Shown here in pieces: positions 7,067 through 46,451 of a DNA stretch of 64,000 nt. The notes below the pieces were generated by a model that worked only from the letters and a program-made list of their open reading frames with translations, made no database searches and was not told the DNA's origin. Origin of the DNA: Streptacidiphilus sp. ASG 303 (GTDB lineage Bacteria > Actinomycetota > Actinomycetes > Streptomycetales > Streptomycetaceae); the NCBI RefSeq assembly GCF_020991365.1, contig NZ_JAJLRA010000003.1:186001-250000 (forward strand), given 5' to 3'. Position numbers and translations under genes: made by a program. Positions within the stretch are counted from its first letter, which is position 1, and the number at the start of each line of letters is the position of its first letter.

Positions 7067-7437
7067 AGCGGCACGAGACCGACGTCTTCTCCCTGATCGC
7101 CGGGGCGGCGTTCACCGGCATAGCGGTCCTCTACCTGGTCGCGTCGGTCAACGACCTGACGGTGAACGGGCGCATCGTGATCCCGGTCGCCCTGATCGCG
7201 CTGGGCACGGCGGGCCTGGCCGGGGCCGTGGCCCGGATGGCGCGCCGCGGCGGCCGCGGGCCGGCCGACGCCGTCGGCGCGGGGGACGCGGCGCGCGTGG
7301 GGGACGCGGCGGACGCGGCGCGCGTGGGGGACGCGGCGCGCGGGGCGGGGCCGGCGGTCACCGTCCCCGGCCCGGCCGCGGAGCCCGGTGCACAGGGCCC
7401 GTCCCACGGCGGCGCACCCGGGCCGCCCGCACCGTAG
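7063..7437 (+). CDS. Small membrane protein, 124 aa
   Basis: Two hydrophobic helices near residues 10-27 and 36-56 are followed by a basic stretch (RMARRGGRG) and a low-complexity Ala/Gly/Pro tail. The tail contains tandem copies of a GDAARV unit. The ATG at 7063 overlaps the stop of the PspC/LiaF-like gene as ATGA, so the two are translated together and probably act in the same envelope-stress module. I do not recognise a family beyond this conserved streptomycete partner of the PspC protein. The repeat tail is likely variable between strains. Confidence 0.75.
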   Translation: MKRHETDVFSLIAGAAFTGIAVLYLVASVNDLTVNGRIVIPVALIALGTAGLAGAVARMARRGGRGPADAVGAGDAARVGDAADAARVGDAARGAGPAVTVPGPAAEPGAQGPSHGGAPGPPAP

Positions 7438-11500: not shown

Positions 11501-13096
11501 TCACTCCCACTCGATGGTGCCCGGCGGCTTGCTGGTGACGTCCAGCACCACGCGGTTGACGTCGGCGACCTCGTTGGTGATGCGGGTCGAGATCCGCGCC
11601 AGCACGTCGTAGGGGACGCGCGACCAGTCGGCCGTCATGGCGTCCTCGGACGAGACCGGGCGCAGCACGACCGGGTGGCCGTAGGTGCGGCCGTCGCCCT
11701 GGACGCCGACCGAGCGGACGTCGGCGAGGAGCACGACCGGGCACTGCCAGATGTCTCGGTCCAGGCCGGCGGCGGTGAGCTCGGCGCGGGCGATGGCGTC
11801 CGCGTCGCGGAGCAGCTCCAGGCGCTCGCGGGTGACCTCGCCGACGATGCGGATGCCGAGGCCGGGGCCGGGGAAGGGCTGGCGCCAGACGATCTCGCCC
11901 GGCAGGCCCAGCTCCAGGCCGACCATGCGGACCTCGTCCTTGAAGAGGCGCCGCAGCGGCTCCACCAGCTGGAACTGCATGTCGTCGGGGAGCCCGCCGA
12001 CGTTGTGGTGGGACTTGATGTTGGCGGTGCCGGCGCCGCCGCCGGACTCCACCACGTCCGGGTAGAGGGTGCCCTGGACGAGGAACTCGACGGGCTCGCC
12101 GGTGGCGCCCGCCTCCTCGACGACCTCGCGGGCGGCCTGCTCGAAGACCCGGATGAACTCGCGGCCGATGATCTTCCGCTTCTCCTCGGGGTCGGTGACC
12201 CCGGCGAGCGCGGAGAGGAAGCGCTCCTGCGCGTCCACGACCTTGAGCTTCACGCCGGTGGCGGCGACGAAGTCCTTCTCGACCTGCTCGGCCTCGCCCT
12301 TGCGCAGCAGGCCGTGGTCGACGAAGACGCAGGTCAGCTGGTCGCCGACGGCCCGCTGGACCAGGGCGGCGGCGACGGCGGAGTCCACGCCGCCGGAGAG
12401 GCCGCAGACGACCCGCTTGGAGCCGACCTGGGCGCGGACCGCCTCGACCGACTCCTCGACCACGTTGCTGGTGGTCCAGGTCGGGGCGAGCCCGGCGCCG
12501 CGGTAGAGGAAGTGCTCCAGCACCTGCTGGCCGTGCGTGGAGTGCAGCACCTCGGGGTGGTACTGGACGCCGTACAGCCGGCGCTCGTCGCACTCGAAGG
12601 CGGCGACGGGGGCGCCCTCGGTGGCGGCGGTCACGGTGAAGCCCTCGGGAGCCGCGGAGACCGAGTCGCCGTGGGACATCCACACCGACTGGTCGCCGGG
12701 GACGCCCTCGAAGAGGGTCGAGCCGGGCTGCGAGACGCTCATCGGGGTGCGGCCGTACTCGCGCAGGCCGGTCCGGGCGACGTCGCCGCCCAGGGCCAGG
12801 GCCATCGCCTGGAAGCCGTAGCAGATGCCGAAGACCGGGACGCCGGCCTCGAACAGCTCGCGCTGCACCGCCGGGGCGCCCTCCGCGTACACGGACGAGG
12901 GCCCGCCGGAGAGGATGATCGCCTTGGGGTCCTTGGCCAGCATCTCCGCCACCGGCATGGTGTGCGGCACGATCTCGCTGTAGACGCGGGCCTCGCGGAC
13001 CCGCCGTGCGATGAGCTGGGCGTACTGGGCGCCGAAGTCGACGACCAGGACCGTGTCGGGCGCCTGGTCGGAGTGTGCGGGGGTCGCTGATGCCAC
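11501..13096 (-). CDS. guaA: GMP synthase (glutamine-hydrolysing), 531 aa
   Basis: It converts XMP to GMP using ATP and glutamine, the last step of guanine nucleotide synthesis. The glutaminase domain occupies residues 15-205, with nucleophile Cys92 (CYGFQ) and His180/Glu182 completing the triad. The ATP-pyrophosphatase domain has the P-loop LSGGVDS at 233-239. The C-terminal dimerisation domain ends in the family-typical KPPGTIEWE. The length is normal. The GTG start at 13096 has GGAAGG 6 bases upstream. It works with guaB at 29930 in this same window. Confidence 0.98.
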
Positions 13097-13217
13097 GTGC
13101 GGCCTTCCGGCGGGTGTGCGGGGGGTCGGAGCCCAAGTCTACCGGCCGCCGCCCCGCGGCCCGCCGGACGGCCCGGGGAGGGGCGTGCGGGGGCCGCGAG
13201 GGGGCGGCGGAGCGGGT

Positions 13218-13529
13218 TCAGGCGCGGCCGCGGCACAGCTCCAGCAGCAGCCTGGCGACCTCGGCGCCGGGGTCGCCCAGCCCGGCCCGGAAGCGCTCCA
13301 TGACCTGCAGCTCGCGGGTGAGGGCGAGGCGGGGGCCGCCGGCGGCGATCCGGGCCGCCTGGACCTCGGCGGAGGCGGCCCTGCGCTGCCGGACCAGGTC
13401 GATGATGCGGGCGTCGAGGTCGTCGATCCGGGAGCGGGCGGCGGCGATGACGGCCTCGGCCCCGTCCGCGTCCACGGCGGGAGCGGCAGGGGTGGGGGCG
13501 GGGGCGGCGGGGGTTGTGTCGGCGTTCAC
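13218..13529 (-). CDS. Chorismate mutase, AroQ type, 103 aa
   Basis: It rearranges chorismate to prephenate for Phe/Tyr synthesis. A Thr/Pro/Ala-rich start (1-22) precedes the helical AroQ core: ARSRIDDLDARIIDLVRQRRAASAEVQAAR carries the family's Arg-Asp-Asp-Lys-type active-site positions, and ELQVMERFR begins the later helix. Like many actinobacterial free-standing mutases it is short. The start is GTG at 13529 with GAGGA 4 bases upstream. The upstream region is unusual: a 9-bp repeat array, a strong hairpin, and a tiny reading frame behind a good -10 box. Confidence 0.85.
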   Translation of the reverse strand: MNADTTPAAPAPTPAAPAVDADGAEAVIAAARSRIDDLDARIIDLVRQRRAASAEVQAARIAAGGPRLALTRELQVMERFRAGLGDPGAEVARLLLELCRGRA

Positions 13530-13539
13530 GGGGTCCTCG

Positions 13540-13602
13540 TTCCTGCGGTTCCTGGGGTTCCTGGGGTTCCTGGGGTTCCTGGGGTTCCTGGGGTTCCTGG
13601 GG
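13540..13602 (-). repeat. 9-bp tandem repeat array before chorismate mutase
   Basis: Six perfect and one degenerate copies of a 9-base unit (CCCCAGGAA on the minus strand) lie 11 to 73 bases upstream of the chorismate mutase start. Each unit contains AGGA, a Shine-Dalgarno-like core. Because the unit length is a multiple of three, one minus-strand frame reads PQE repeats, but there is no independent sign that it is translated. Copy number probably varies by slippage. Confidence 0.9.
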
Positions 13603-13636
13603 GCGGGGCGCCCGGCCGGCGGACCTCGGGAACGAC

Positions 13637-13667
13637 GGGCGCCCCGGACCTTCCGGCCCGGGGCGCC
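13637..13667 (-). terminator. Hairpin between short upstream frame and chorismate mutase
   Basis: The arms GGCGCCCCGGACC (13638-13650) and GGCCCGGGGCGCC (13655-13667) pair at 12 of 13 positions around a 4-base loop. It lies about 110 bases upstream of the chorismate mutase start and about 25 bases downstream of a 24-codon frame. It may be an attenuator-like or ordinary intrinsic terminator; no clear alternative antiterminator pairing was found by eye. Confidence 0.6.
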
Positions 13668-13690
13668 TGTGCGGAGTCTGCGTCAGTCGT

Positions 13691-13765
13691 TCACGCGGCA
13701 GCAGCACGACGGCATCCGGACCCGCCGGCGCCCTGGGTGAAAACGTGCTGAGCCGCTCTGGACAT
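13691..13765 (-). CDS. Possible 24-codon leader peptide
   Basis: ATG at 13765 opens a 24-codon frame ending TGA at 13691; its product begins MSRAAQHVFTQG. The ATG sits about where transcription would begin from the CATAAT box at 13772-13777, so a leaderless start is possible; GAGGGC next to it is too close for a normal ribosome site. It holds a single Phe and no Tyr or Trp, so it is not an obvious aromatic attenuator. The support is only positional, so this is a weak call. Confidence 0.25.
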   Translation of the reverse strand: MSRAAQHVFTQGAGGSGCRRAAAA

Positions 13766-13771
13766 GCCCTC

Positions 13772-13777
13772 ATTATG
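13772..13777 (-). promoter_or_regulatory. Candidate -10 box (CATAAT)
   Basis: CATAAT on the minus strand differs from consensus TATAAT at one position and stands out in this GC-rich intergenic DNA. Its start point would fall near 13765, driving transcription toward the short frame, the hairpin and chorismate mutase. No convincing -35 is visible 16-18 bases upstream. Confidence 0.45.
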
Positions 13778-14691
13778 GACCGATCGGTAGCGGAACACCG
13801 CAGGGGGGCGGGTACCCGGGGGCGGGCGGGCCCGGGCGACGGGCGGCAGCCCGGTCTTTCACCCGTTCGGCCGCGGCGGCGGGCGTGACCGGCCACCGCC
13901 CGGGCTCGTTGTTCCCGGCGACCGTACGAGCGCCCCCGCACCAGCCAGGGCGGGGCGCCGGCCCCTCGCACGGGGCCGTTGCGTACGGCACGCAGGACCA
14001 CGCGTGGAACCTCCAGTCCGCCGGCGCGTTGAGGCGCGCGGCCCGACCCGCCACCGGCTCGCGCCGGCCGGGACGGACCGTGCGCCGTGGGACACCGCGC
14101 CGGTGCTGTGATCGGAAAGCAGGGGACAGCGGCCCGGTCACGACTGAAAAGGAAGGGCGGCCGGTCCCGGGGACGCCCGGGCCGGCCGTCCCGCCGACGG
14201 CGCCTCCCCGAACGTACGCGGGGCGCGCCACCACTCCCCACGGGCGCGCGCACCTCTCCCGCGCGCCCCGAGAGCATCCTTACACAGAGTGACGATCGCC
14301 AGGCCGCGCCACCCCGGCGCCCGGCGGCCGCCCGCCCCGGCGGAACGGACGTCACCGAGTGTGCCGAACCGGTTGCACGGACCCCTCTCCGTCCCCCACG
14401 ATGCTGATGAGGGGGTTCACCGCCACCGCGGTCGCGGAGCCGGCGGTACCGGTCGCGACCGCGCGCGGTCGGCACGGTCGCACCGTCCGCCACCTCACGC
14501 TCAGTGATCGCTCGACCGTGTCCAGGCCCCATCGCCACCCGCTCCACCCCGGAACACTCCCGACCACGCCACTCCCGTACAGCCCTGCGCACCCCAGCCC
14601 TGCGCACCCCAGGCCACTCCTCCGGACGGCGCTCCTCCCCCGGCGCCGTCCCCCCAGCACCGGCGCTGCCCTGACGCCGCGTGCTGAACGA
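13778..14691 (+). other. Long intergenic stretch with no convincing gene
   Basis: About 0.9 kb without a gene I can support on either strand: frames here lack family motifs and the codon bias is not gene-like. It contains a direct repeat of AGCCCTGCGCACCCC near 14580-14610, several A/T-richer patches (around 14100-14160 and 14275-14290) that may hold promoters, and the terminator at its right edge. A small RNA gene could be hidden here but nothing in the sequence proves it. Confidence 0.5.
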
Positions 14692-14722
14692 CAAAGGGCC
14701 CCGCTCCCCGCGGGGCCCTTTG
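14692..14722 (-). terminator. Perfect hairpin terminator
   Basis: Thirteen-base perfect arms (CAAAGGGCCCCGC and its complement) flank a 5-base loop. It lies 62 bases after the stop of the DUF4231-like gene and ends that transcript. The A-run before the left arm gives U-like character in both directions, so it may work bidirectionally. Confidence 0.85.
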
Positions 14723-14783
14723 CCTTTGCCACTCCTGCTGCCGTCGGCGGGTTCGCCGCCGGGGGCGGGCGCGCCGCCCGCCG

Positions 14784-15407
14784 CTACCCCGCCGGGGAGC
14801 CCCCCGCGCCGGGGCCGGGCAGGGCCGCCCTGCGGCCCTCCGCCCAGAGCCTGGTCTCGTTCAGCGCGACCTCCTCCGCGCGGGCCAGCAGCGCCTCGCG
14901 GGCCGCCGCGTCCCGCTCCGCCTCCGGCAGCAGCCGGTAGCGCACCACGGCCTGCTGGAGCTCCTGCCACGCCACACCGGCGGACGCCCAGCGCTCTCCC
15001 GGGCCGAGCAGCTGGCGCAGTCCGGTGAGGAAGACGCTCCCGGCGGCGACCGCGGCCGTGGCGAACGCCGGGGCGGAGAGCGCGGAGGCCACCACCGTCG
15101 CCGACGTCGTCGTGAGCAGCGCGAGCTCCACGGCCCGGTGGGTGCGCCGGGCGCGGGCGCGCGACCGCCCGTACCAGGCCAGCTGGGCGAGCACGTGGTC
15201 CAGCAGCGGGTCGGGGGCGCCCGCCGGGGGTGCGGACGCGTCCGCGGGCGCCCCCGGCGCGGGGACGCGGGCCCGGGCGCCGGCGGCCCCGGGCGCCCGG
15301 GCCCCCGGGGCCGGGTCGTCGGGTGCCGGGTCCTCGGACACGGGGTCCTCGGGTGCCGGGTCCTCCGGTGCGGGAGCGGGGAGCCTCCGGTCGTCCTGCG
15401 TCGCCAC
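14784..15407 (-). CDS. DUF4231/SLATT-like two-helix membrane protein, 207 aa
   Basis: A Pro/Ala/Asp-rich N-terminal half with APEDP-type repeats precedes a conserved block starting LAWYGRSRARARRTHR. Two hydrophobic helices follow and then an amphipathic helix (WASAGVAWQELQQAVVRYR). This is the layout of the DUF4231 family, related to SLATT domains, some of which are pore-like effectors in defence systems; the function here is unknown. I favour GTG at 15407 because AGGAGG lies 9 bases upstream. An ATG at 15452 would overlap the TMEM175 stop by one base (TGATG) and is the alternative. It follows the TMEM175 gene in one unit. Confidence 0.7.
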   Translation of the reverse strand: MATQDDRRLPAPAPEDPAPEDPVSEDPAPDDPAPGARAPGAAGARARVPAPGAPADASAPPAGAPDPLLDHVLAQLAWYGRSRARARRTHRAVELALLTTTSATVVASALSAPAFATAAVAAGSVFLTGLRQLLGPGERWASAGVAWQELQQAVVRYRLLPEAERDAAAREALLARAEEVALNETRLWAEGRRAALPGPGAGGSPAG

Positions 15408-45694: not shown

Positions 45695-46261
45695 GTGGCG
45701 AAGATCGGTTCGGGGACGGTCGTCACCGGACTCACCCTGGGGGCGATGGCGGCGGTCGCGGCCCTCGCGGTGCAGGCGCAGGGGACCGGGCGGAAGGCCG
45801 CCCCGGCCTCTCCCCCGCCGCCCTCCGGAGCCTCGGCGTCCCCCCGCCCGGGGGCGGCGCAGGCCCCGCCCGTCCCGGCGCTGCCCGCCGCCTCGGGCAC
45901 CGGCCGCCGGGTGGTCTACTCCCTCGGCGCCGACCGGGTGTGGCTGGTGGACCCGGCGCGCACGCCGCAGGTGGTGCGGAGCTTCCGGGTGCGGCCCAGC
46001 GCCGTCGACCCGGCGCCCGGCACCTACGGCGTCTTCTCGCGCCGCCCGGCCGTCACCGGCTCGGACGGGCGGCCGATCGAGCACGTGCTGCTGTTCGCCC
46101 GGTCGTCCGGGGTCCCGGTGGGGTTCAGCGCGGCGGTGGACGGCAGTCTGCCGACGCCCGTCCCGGGGAGCCGCACGGGCGGGATCCGGGAGACACGGGC
46201 GGACGGCGCCGCGCTGTGGCGGTTCGCCCCGCTGCAGAGCCGGGTCGTGGTGGTGCCCTGA
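45695..46261 (+). CDS. Membrane-anchored or secreted protein of unknown function, 188 aa
   Basis: One hydrophobic segment (about residues 8-28, GLTLGAMAAVAALAVQA) acts as signal anchor, followed by a Pro/Ala/Ser linker to about residue 65. An outer domain of about 120 residues follows, with RRVVYSLGADRVWLVDP and HVLLFARSSGVPVGFSAAVDG, which looks like beta-structure. I do not recognise the family; in streptomycetes it appears between tsaB and tsaE genes. GTG at 45695 has GAGGAG 6 bases upstream. The stop codon lies within the first unit of a tandem repeat array. Confidence 0.75.
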   Translation: MAKIGSGTVVTGLTLGAMAAVAALAVQAQGTGRKAAPASPPPPSGASASPRPGAAQAPPVPALPAASGTGRRVVYSLGADRVWLVDPARTPQVVRSFRVRPSAVDPAPGTYGVFSRRPAVTGSDGRPIEHVLLFARSSGVPVGFSAAVDGSLPTPVPGSRTGGIRETRADGAALWRFAPLQSRVVVVP

Positions 46262-46362
46262 CGCCGATGCCGCCCTGACGCGGTGGTGCCCTGACGCGGT
46301 GGTGCCCTGACGCGGTGGTGCCCTGGCGCGGTGCCGCCCTGGCGCGACGGTGTCCTGACGCG
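46254..46362 (+). repeat. 16-bp tandem repeat array after the secreted-protein gene
   Basis: Units close to TGCCCTGACGCGGTGG recur about six times, three nearly perfect in the middle and degenerate at both ends. The first unit includes the stop codon of the preceding gene, and each unit contains TGA in that same context (CCCTGACG), as if the gene end had been duplicated repeatedly. Confidence 0.88.
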
Positions 46363-46451
46363 AGGGTGGACCGGCGCGCGCGGACCGGCGCGGCGGCCGG
46401 TCACCGGCGGTGATCGGCGGTGACCGGCGGTCCCGCCGGTGCGCGGGCGCG

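What the first reader, a model, noticed from the sequence alone, without database searches (positions are those of the whole stretch)
13540..13777. Odd upstream region of chorismate mutase: -10 box, 24-codon frame, hairpin and SD-like repeats
In the direction of transcription come CATAAT, an ATG at about the predicted start point opening a 24-codon frame, a 13-bp-stem hairpin, seven 9-bp units each containing AGGA, then the real ribosome site. The layout resembles attenuation or translational control of an aromatic amino acid branch point. The repeats could sequester ribosomes or be a length-variable tuner of expression. The leader has only one Phe codon, so a classical aromatic attenuator is not supported.
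Basis: partly seen in the sequence, partly recalled or inferred. Interest (0 to 1): 0.5.

Follow-up and report, generated by a model that had tools for sequence, protein, structure and literature searches.

The report
Worn copy of aromatic attenuator
The stretch before the chorismate mutase gene is a worn copy of a genetic switch, widespread before this gene in the Streptomyces family, in which a tiny leader peptide with phenylalanine and tyrosine codons probably decides whether the gene is transcribed.

Summary
All the features are real: on the minus strand a -10 box, a leaderless 24-codon frame, a 13-bp hairpin, seven 9-bp repeats and the ribosome site of chorismate mutase (CM).

Relatives show what they are. 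Of 110 CM upstream regions, 106 carry TTTACCTATGG with at most one mismatch (0 of 330 shuffles do). It reads Phe-Thr-Tyr-Gly in frame with a start codon 6-7 nt after a -10 box. Then come a hairpin over the Tyr codon, a covarying hairpin around the leader stop, and a terminator-like hairpin. An alternative antiterminator pairing is possible in all 109 loci tested, but only modestly better than controls. This is the layout of a Phe/Tyr ribosome-mediated attenuator. No Rfam family matches, and a 2005 survey reported none for Phe/Tyr genes in Actinobacteria.

The window copy is worn: UUC for UUU, CAG for UAU, and the weakest first hairpin of 109. Both genus relatives keep the consensus. The 9-bp array is unique in the genome and absent from both.

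Open puzzle: the control codons are almost always the rare synonyms UUU and UAU, although the genome shows one tRNA-Phe and one tRNA-Tyr. No experiment was run.

The parts
13772..13777 (-). -10 element CATAAT of the leader promoter
   Evidence: a [TC]AnnnT 6-7 nt before an in-frame leader start in 107 of 109 loci
13691..13765 (-). leaderless leader-peptide ORF, MSRAAQHVFTQGAGGSGCRRAAAA*
   Evidence: 17 of 24 aligned positions identical to the leader of genus relative G001, MSSAAQHFSFTYGTGGSGCHGAAA*
13733..13741 (-). degraded control codons UUC-ACC-CAG (consensus UUU-ACC-UAU)
13711..13732 (-). P1 (1:2) hairpin, weakened: -12.2 kcal/mol against a median of -19.4 in 109 loci
13680..13696 (-). P2 hairpin around the leader stop, weak here (GCGU/ACGC)
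   Evidence: sequence and structure; P2 across loci
13704..13722 (-). region 2 of the proposed antiterminator (pairs with 13673-13655)
   Evidence: duplex -23.0 kcal/mol; control
13655..13673 (-). region 3: 5' arm of the terminator-like hairpin and 3' arm of the proposed antiterminator
13628..13667 (-). P3 (3:4) terminator-like hairpin, 13 bp with GGAA loop, and short T-containing tail
   Evidence: T fraction 0.385 just after P3 against 0.079 further on, over 109 loci
13539..13602 (-). seven 9-bp units CCCAGGAAC, each with an AGGA; lineage-specific expansion at the SD position
13534..13538 (-). SD-like GAGGA of chorismate mutase
   Evidence: duplex with anti-SD -5.9 against -4.3 kcal/mol for a repeat unit
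13218..13529 (-). chorismate mutase gene (type II, GTG start)

Best explanation
The region is a derived, probably weakened copy of a ribosome-mediated Phe/Tyr transcription attenuator that precedes chorismate mutase in most Streptomycetaceae sampled. Inferred working of the intact version: the transcript starts at the leader AUG. When Phe-tRNA and Tyr-tRNA are plentiful the ribosome runs through UUU-ACC-UAU to the stop and covers region 2, so the terminator 3:4 forms and CM is not transcribed. When they are scarce it stalls on UUU or UAU and covers arm 1, so region 2 pairs with region 3 around P2, the terminator cannot form, and CM is made. In the window organism, regions 2, 3 and 4 and the in-frame leader are kept, but the Tyr codon is gone, Phe is UUC, and hairpin 1:2 is the weakest found. 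I expect weaker Phe-only sensing and more read-through there. The SD-like 9-bp array is a later local addition. Shown: conservation of sequence, frame and hairpins, and covariation in P1-P3. Only suggested: the 2:3 antiterminator. Inferred: transcription start, translation, stalling, termination and all regulation.
For: TTTACCTATGG with 0 or 1 mismatch in 106 of 110 CM upstream regions (89 and 17; 2 more with 2, and 2 with 3, the window among these), against 0 of 330 shuffles and 0 of 110 reverse complements. Leader start with -10 box found in 107 of 109; all 110 combinations of -10 box plus start codon lie in frame with UUU, 0 in the other two frames, although the distance is 4, 7, 8, 9 or 11 codons. 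P1, P2, P3 over 99 distinct sequences: 16 pairs with changes on both sides against 9.2 (sd 1.5) in shuffles and 101 such cells against 28.6; slid structures pair 32-47% of cells against 91.8% (alignment fitted to the structure). Region 2 can pair with region 3 in 109 of 109 loci when arm 1 is masked. T enrichment after P3. The element goes with CM: 74.5-114.8 bits in 12 of 12 genomes with CM (9 of the 12 gave model seeds), at most 40.5 bits in 20 of 20 genomes without a CM match (20 of the 65 such genomes). Window against G001 and G002: long identical stretches around the stop and P3, with the sensor segment strongly changed.
Against: No transcript, ribosome or expression data. The 2:3 antiterminator is only modestly better than a control: with region 2 shuffled, 4 or more such pairs still form in 89.6% of trials (8 or more: 67.2% against 104 of 109), energy -21.9 against -24.2, and 24% of shuffles fold as well; its covariation is weak (own duplex -18.5, foreign -17.6, 33.5% of foreign partners as strong). 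The whole region does not fold better than shuffles. No -35 was found. The U-tract after P3 is short (window tail CGTCGTTCCC). P2 is significant as a group but in only 15 of 79 segments alone. The window's 3-mismatch match is by itself within chance (74 of 330 shuffles reach 3 or fewer); its homology rests. One genome with an intact-looking leader (G387) scores low with the model.
Confidence: 0.74

Rival explanations
1. The window copy is still a fully working, Phe-only attenuator: the single UUC with the kept 2:3 and 3:4 pairing is enough.
For: Frame kept through a 3-nt gap in the sensor; Phe kept; 2:3 duplex -23.0 kcal/mol, stronger than 97% of foreign partners.
Against: Weakest P1 of 109; only one Phe/Tyr codon, where the other 106 leaders counted have 2-5; UAU lost.
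Confidence: 0.3
2. The sensor is not codon-specific stalling but the nascent peptide or an RNA-bound ligand or protein, since nucleotide conservation exceeds what the peptide needs.
For: UUU-ACC-UAU-GGC nearly invariant in 109 loci; rare synonyms chosen although UUU is mostly unpaired; the 2:3 antiterminator is not strongly supported.
Against: Peptide after FTYG changes frame in several loci (GTGxSGCHG against GNRPGRLPW and the like); Thr replaced by Ser, Ile or Phe; Catenulispora locus L018 has UUUUUUUAUGGCUAUGG, more Phe/Tyr codons and no Thr; UUC and UAC occur in a few.
Confidence: 0.14
3. The hairpin is only a terminator or insulator for readthrough from upstream, and the short ORF is incidental.
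For: Strong GC hairpin with T-enriched tail; similar hairpins lie at or near gene ends in these genomes.
Against: Frame conservation 110:0:0, control codons, P1 and P2 covariation, co-occurrence with CM.
Confidence: 0.06
4. The 9-bp SD-like array now sets CM translation (ribosome decoys or standby sites), having replaced the attenuator as the control.
For: Seven AGGA units just upstream of the SD, unique in the genome, absent from G001 and G002.
Against: Units pair more weakly with the anti-SD than the real SD; no strain comparison was possible; slippage expansion without function is enough.
Confidence: 0.15

Closest known systems
E. coli pheL-pheA attenuator (as described in PMC11802643, passages read)
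   Same: Leader peptide controls a gene with chorismate mutase activity through Phe-tRNA supply.
   Different: Here a monofunctional CM, a leaderless ORF, Phe plus Tyr codons; sequence homology not tested.
C. glutamicum aroR-aroF attenuator (Neshat 2014, seen only through PMC11802643 passages)
   Same: Actinobacterial leader with Phe-Tyr-Phe and ribosome stalling.
   Different: Controls DAHP synthase, not CM; Tyr reported to have no effect; sequence not compared here.
Leader peptides of Streptomyces lividans, e.g. trpL1, leuL2 (PMC8079986, passages read)
   Same: Mostly leaderless leader ORF, then hairpins, before an amino-acid gene.
   Different: The eight listed there are for Ala, Ile, Thr, Trp, Leu and Met; none for Phe/Tyr and none before CM.
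trp and leuS attenuators of Streptomyces (Seliverstov 2005, PMC1262725, passages read)
   Same: Alternative antiterminator and terminator hairpins plus control codons.
   Different: That paper states that no conserved structures were seen upstream of Phe or Tyr operons.

Membership tests
ribosome-mediated (leader-peptide) transcription attenuator | short translated ORF with codons for the end product | tested here: met
   Relatives: UUU in 106 and UAU in 105 of 109 loci, frame conserved 110:0:0; translation itself inferred. Window copy: met only in part, one UUC and no Tyr codon.
ribosome-mediated (leader-peptide) transcription attenuator | conserved 1:2 and 3:4 hairpins | tested here: met
   in the window 1:2 is weak.
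ribosome-mediated (leader-peptide) transcription attenuator | competing 2:3 antiterminator pairing | tested here: inconclusive
   Possible in 109 of 109, 10.3 pairs on average against 7.9 with region 2 shuffled; covariation weak.
ribosome-mediated (leader-peptide) transcription attenuator | intrinsic terminator (hairpin plus U-tract) before the gene | tested here: inconclusive
   Hairpin conserved; T enriched but the tract is short; the automatic scan of 13000-15000 did not report it.
ribosome-mediated (leader-peptide) transcription attenuator | starvation for the amino acid raises read-through | not testable with these tools
   Needs transcripts or reporters.
Rfam RNA family (any) | match to a catalogued family | tested here: not met
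   Window at gathering score: none. 13500-14700 at E<=5: three hits, all far below their gathering scores. Nine relatives at E<=1: 8 hits, none at the leader. Seven loci at E<=0.5: none.
pheL or aroR leader | sequence homology to those leaders | not tested
   Their sequences were not fetched.

The most novel reading that the evidence does not exclude
A Phe/Tyr attenuator of CM, nearly universal in the Streptomycetaceae sampled, uses the rarest synonyms UUU and UAU as fixed control codons. One tRNA serves both synonyms, so selective charging of isoacceptors cannot explain the choice; slow wobble decoding may act as a built-in timer. In the window lineage the timer and sensor have been lost and a slippage-prone Shine-Dalgarno array has arisen between the old switch and the gene.
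Probability: 0.35. Interest if true: 0.65.

Novelty: new member of a known kind. Interest (0 to 1): 0.5.

Why it matters
It gives Streptomyces a likely end-product control for the step that commits chorismate to Phe and Tyr, where a published survey found none. That branch also feeds secondary metabolites (general knowledge), so the switch is a handle for strain engineering. The nearly invariant rare codons in a single-tRNA setting are a clean natural test of why attenuators choose particular codons.

Tried and rejected
Repeats as an N-terminal extension of CM: the CM frame is open for 51 codons upstream through the array but holds no ATG, GTG or TTG; rejected.

Same leader on other genes: 12 genomes gave secondary hits of up to 42 bits, many of them the terminator part alone; I read four (L179-L182), hairpins at or near gene ends without a leader frame by my rule nearby. 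The others were not read, so this is unlikely rather than excluded.

UUU conserved for pairing: mean pairing probability 0.10-0.17; the middle U is paired (>0.5) in 11 of 109 loci, 7 of them with a similar partner distance; rejected for most loci. UAU does lie in P1.

The first P2 segmentation failed because P3 absorbed the P2 arm; a fixed cut gave a weak cross-locus test (own -7.41, foreign -5.93; 13 of 109 loci stronger than 90% of foreign partners). RNAalifold on the MAFFT alignment found little. Alignments A2 and A3 held reverse-strand matches and were dropped; A4 was used. Of 34 seeds picked for the model, 30 were aligned. L018 gave no match at E<=1e-9.

Dropped rows: L028 was lost to my terminator pattern, so most counts are on 109. 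L076 and L078 have an in-frame start but no -10 by my rule. P2 in A4 is partly misaligned (65% of cells paired). Of the family genomes with no or weak model match, all six were checked for CM: G219's CM lies at a contig end, G387 has CM and keeps TTTACCTATGG, and G115, G173, G008 and G015 have no CM match. In two others with weaker CM matches, L244 has UUC-GGC-UAC and L245 has UUC-GGC-CAC.

Codon usage was taken from ORFs chosen by high GC3, which biases against UUU and UAU.

I also corrected the tandem-repeat ranking and confirmed guaA.

Full report
Setting. The window is part of a genome (G000) of family f1, in a genus with three held genomes. I take the family to be Streptomycetaceae because several f1 contigs have the same lengths as named Streptacidiphilus, Actinacidiphila and Streptomyces records. 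The gene at 13529-13218 on the minus strand is a monofunctional chorismate mutase, followed on the same strand by guaA at 13096-11501.

All listed features are at the stated places. By score the array is behind only two other tandem-repeat places in the window, 46249-46378 and 7256-7365, and its exact two-unit match occurs nowhere else in the genome.

Relatives explain it. I took the upstream regions of 110 CM genes: the window, 29 relatives and 80 more. They are the top of the ranked list of 232 family genomes (of 297) with a CM match, so close relatives of this CM are over-represented. The best match to TTTACCTATGG has 0, 1, 2 and 3 mismatches in 89, 17, 2 and 2 loci. No shuffle of 330 and no reverse complement of 110 reaches 0 or 1; 3 or fewer is reached by 74 of 330 shuffles, so the window and L042 (3 each) need other support: both score at least 70 bits with the model (L042 was one of its seeds). 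In 107 of 109 a start codon (106 ATG, 1 GTG) lies 6 or 7 nt after a [TC]AnnnT box, so the leader is probably leaderless, as most S. lividans leader peptides are (PMC8079986, passages). All 110 combinations of -10 box and start codon fall in the frame of UUU, none in the other two frames, with 4-11 codons between. That is strong evidence for translation.

Structure. P1 pairs CC(U)AUGGCA-CCGG with CCGG-UGCCAUGG, over the Tyr codon. P2 surrounds the leader stop and covaries: GCUUG/CAAGC, GCCUG/CAGGC, GUCUG/CAGAC, GUCGC/GCGAC, GCAUG/CAUGC. P3 is a GC-rich hairpin with T-enriched tail. On 99 distinct sequences 16 pairs change on both sides (shuffles 9.2, sd 1.5) and 101 cells do (28.6); sliding the partners destroys pairing (the alignment was fitted to the structure, which favours it). 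When the first arm is masked as by a stalled ribosome, region 2 pairs with region 3 around P2 in 109 of 109 loci, mean -24.2 kcal/mol. A control added late tempers this: with region 2 shuffled, 89.6% of trials still form 4 or more such pairs, though fewer on average (7.9 against 10.3) and less stably (-21.9; 24% of shuffles as stable). Covariation between the arms is weak. The 2:3 state is thus plausible, not proven.

Distribution. A covariance model from 30 loci matches 290 of 293 genomes of the order at E<=0.01; by my reading of the table 272 of them at 2e-15 or better, all in the family. Weaker hits are often the terminator part alone. In 12 genomes with CM the full element scores 74.5-114.8 bits (9 of the 12 supplied seeds). 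In 20 of the 65 genomes without a CM match nothing exceeds 40.5 bits. Outside the family, Catenulispora loci carry leaders rich in Phe and Tyr codons (L017, L018); L017 scores 42.8 bits, L018 is not found at E<=1e-9. No Rfam family matches at the leader.

The window copy is the odd one out. Against its two genus relatives, long stretches around the leader stop and P3 are identical, but where G001 reads CTTCTCGTTTACCTATGGCA the window reads CGTT---TTCACCCAGGGCG, keeping the frame. UUU is UUC, UAU is CAG, and P1 is the weakest of 109 (-12.2 against a median of -19.4 kcal/mol). The relatives are not perfect either: G002 has a changed P1 3' arm (GCCGAGG). Regions 2, 3 and 4 remain. I infer a weakened switch with more read-through. 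Other losses occur: L065 has CAU for UAU, and L244 and L245, beside weaker CM matches, have UUC-GGC-UAC and UUC-GGC-CAC. In L244 the P1 pairing appears kept by compensating changes, by my reading of the sequence.

Rare control codons. UUU is 2 of 246 Phe codons and UAU 2 of 232 Tyr codons in 26 window ORFs; 2 of 333 and 7 of 254 in 29 ORFs of eight relatives' loci. Yet UUU stands in 106 and UAU in 105 of 109 leaders, while the Phe and Tyr codons just upstream in the same leaders are 82 UUC, 26 UAC, 1 UUU and 0 UAU. The genome (99.5% complete) shows one tRNA-Phe (GAA) and one tRNA-Tyr (GUA) among 66 distinct tRNA genes that ARAGORN found in the regions of all 70 Rfam tRNA hits. Selective charging of isoacceptors, the published explanation for codon choice in E. 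coli leaders (PMC1183508, passages), therefore cannot apply here. UAU is partly explained by P1 pairing. UUU is mostly unpaired (0.10-0.17) and remains unexplained; slow wobble decoding is a guess.

The 9-bp array. It sits where the relatives have their SD segment. Each unit pairs with the anti-SD more weakly than the true SD does. Of 109 loci, three have any exact array of three or more copies between P3 and about the CM match, the other two with different 6-bp units. It is best seen as a local slippage expansion; a tuning role is possible and untested.

Prior knowledge. Seliverstov 2005 (PMC1262725, passages) reports no conserved RNA structures upstream of Phe and Tyr operons in the Actinobacteria then sequenced. 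Droste 2021 (PMC8079986, passages and outline) lists eight leader peptides in S. lividans, none for Phe/Tyr or CM. In ten searches of open full text no listed title or abstract start points to this element; I opened four of the papers and saw passages. Subscription journals are mostly not covered. The gene label used was recalled and may be wrong.

Noticed in passing
window 13850-14175, minus strand: Conserved structured noncoding block of about 300 nt upstream of the leader, found by nhmmer (E<0.01) in 38 of the 44 loci L009-L052 (a few loci are duplicates). RNAalifold on 17 sequences gives 29 pairs, 10 with changes on both sides, covariation term only -0.86. No Rfam match near a gathering score. 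Possibly an uncatalogued ncRNA or riboswitch.
   Followed up: partly
window 13218-14175 and loci L012, L013, L015, L026-L052: In the window genus and Streptacidiphilus-like loci the block and leader-CM lie on one strand. In Actinacidiphila (L012, L015), a Streptomyces (L013) and several similar loci the block lies 3' of CM on the other strand, so the leader-CM cassette seems inverted between clades.
   Followed up: partly
L245 (G260), upstream of CM: Extra sequence with an inverted repeat lies between the terminator hairpin and CM, CM matches in two pieces, and the leader has lost its Tyr codon.
   Followed up: no
window 46249-46378 and 7256-7365: GC-rich tandem arrays with the highest tandem-repeat scores in the window (149 and 134).
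   Followed up: no
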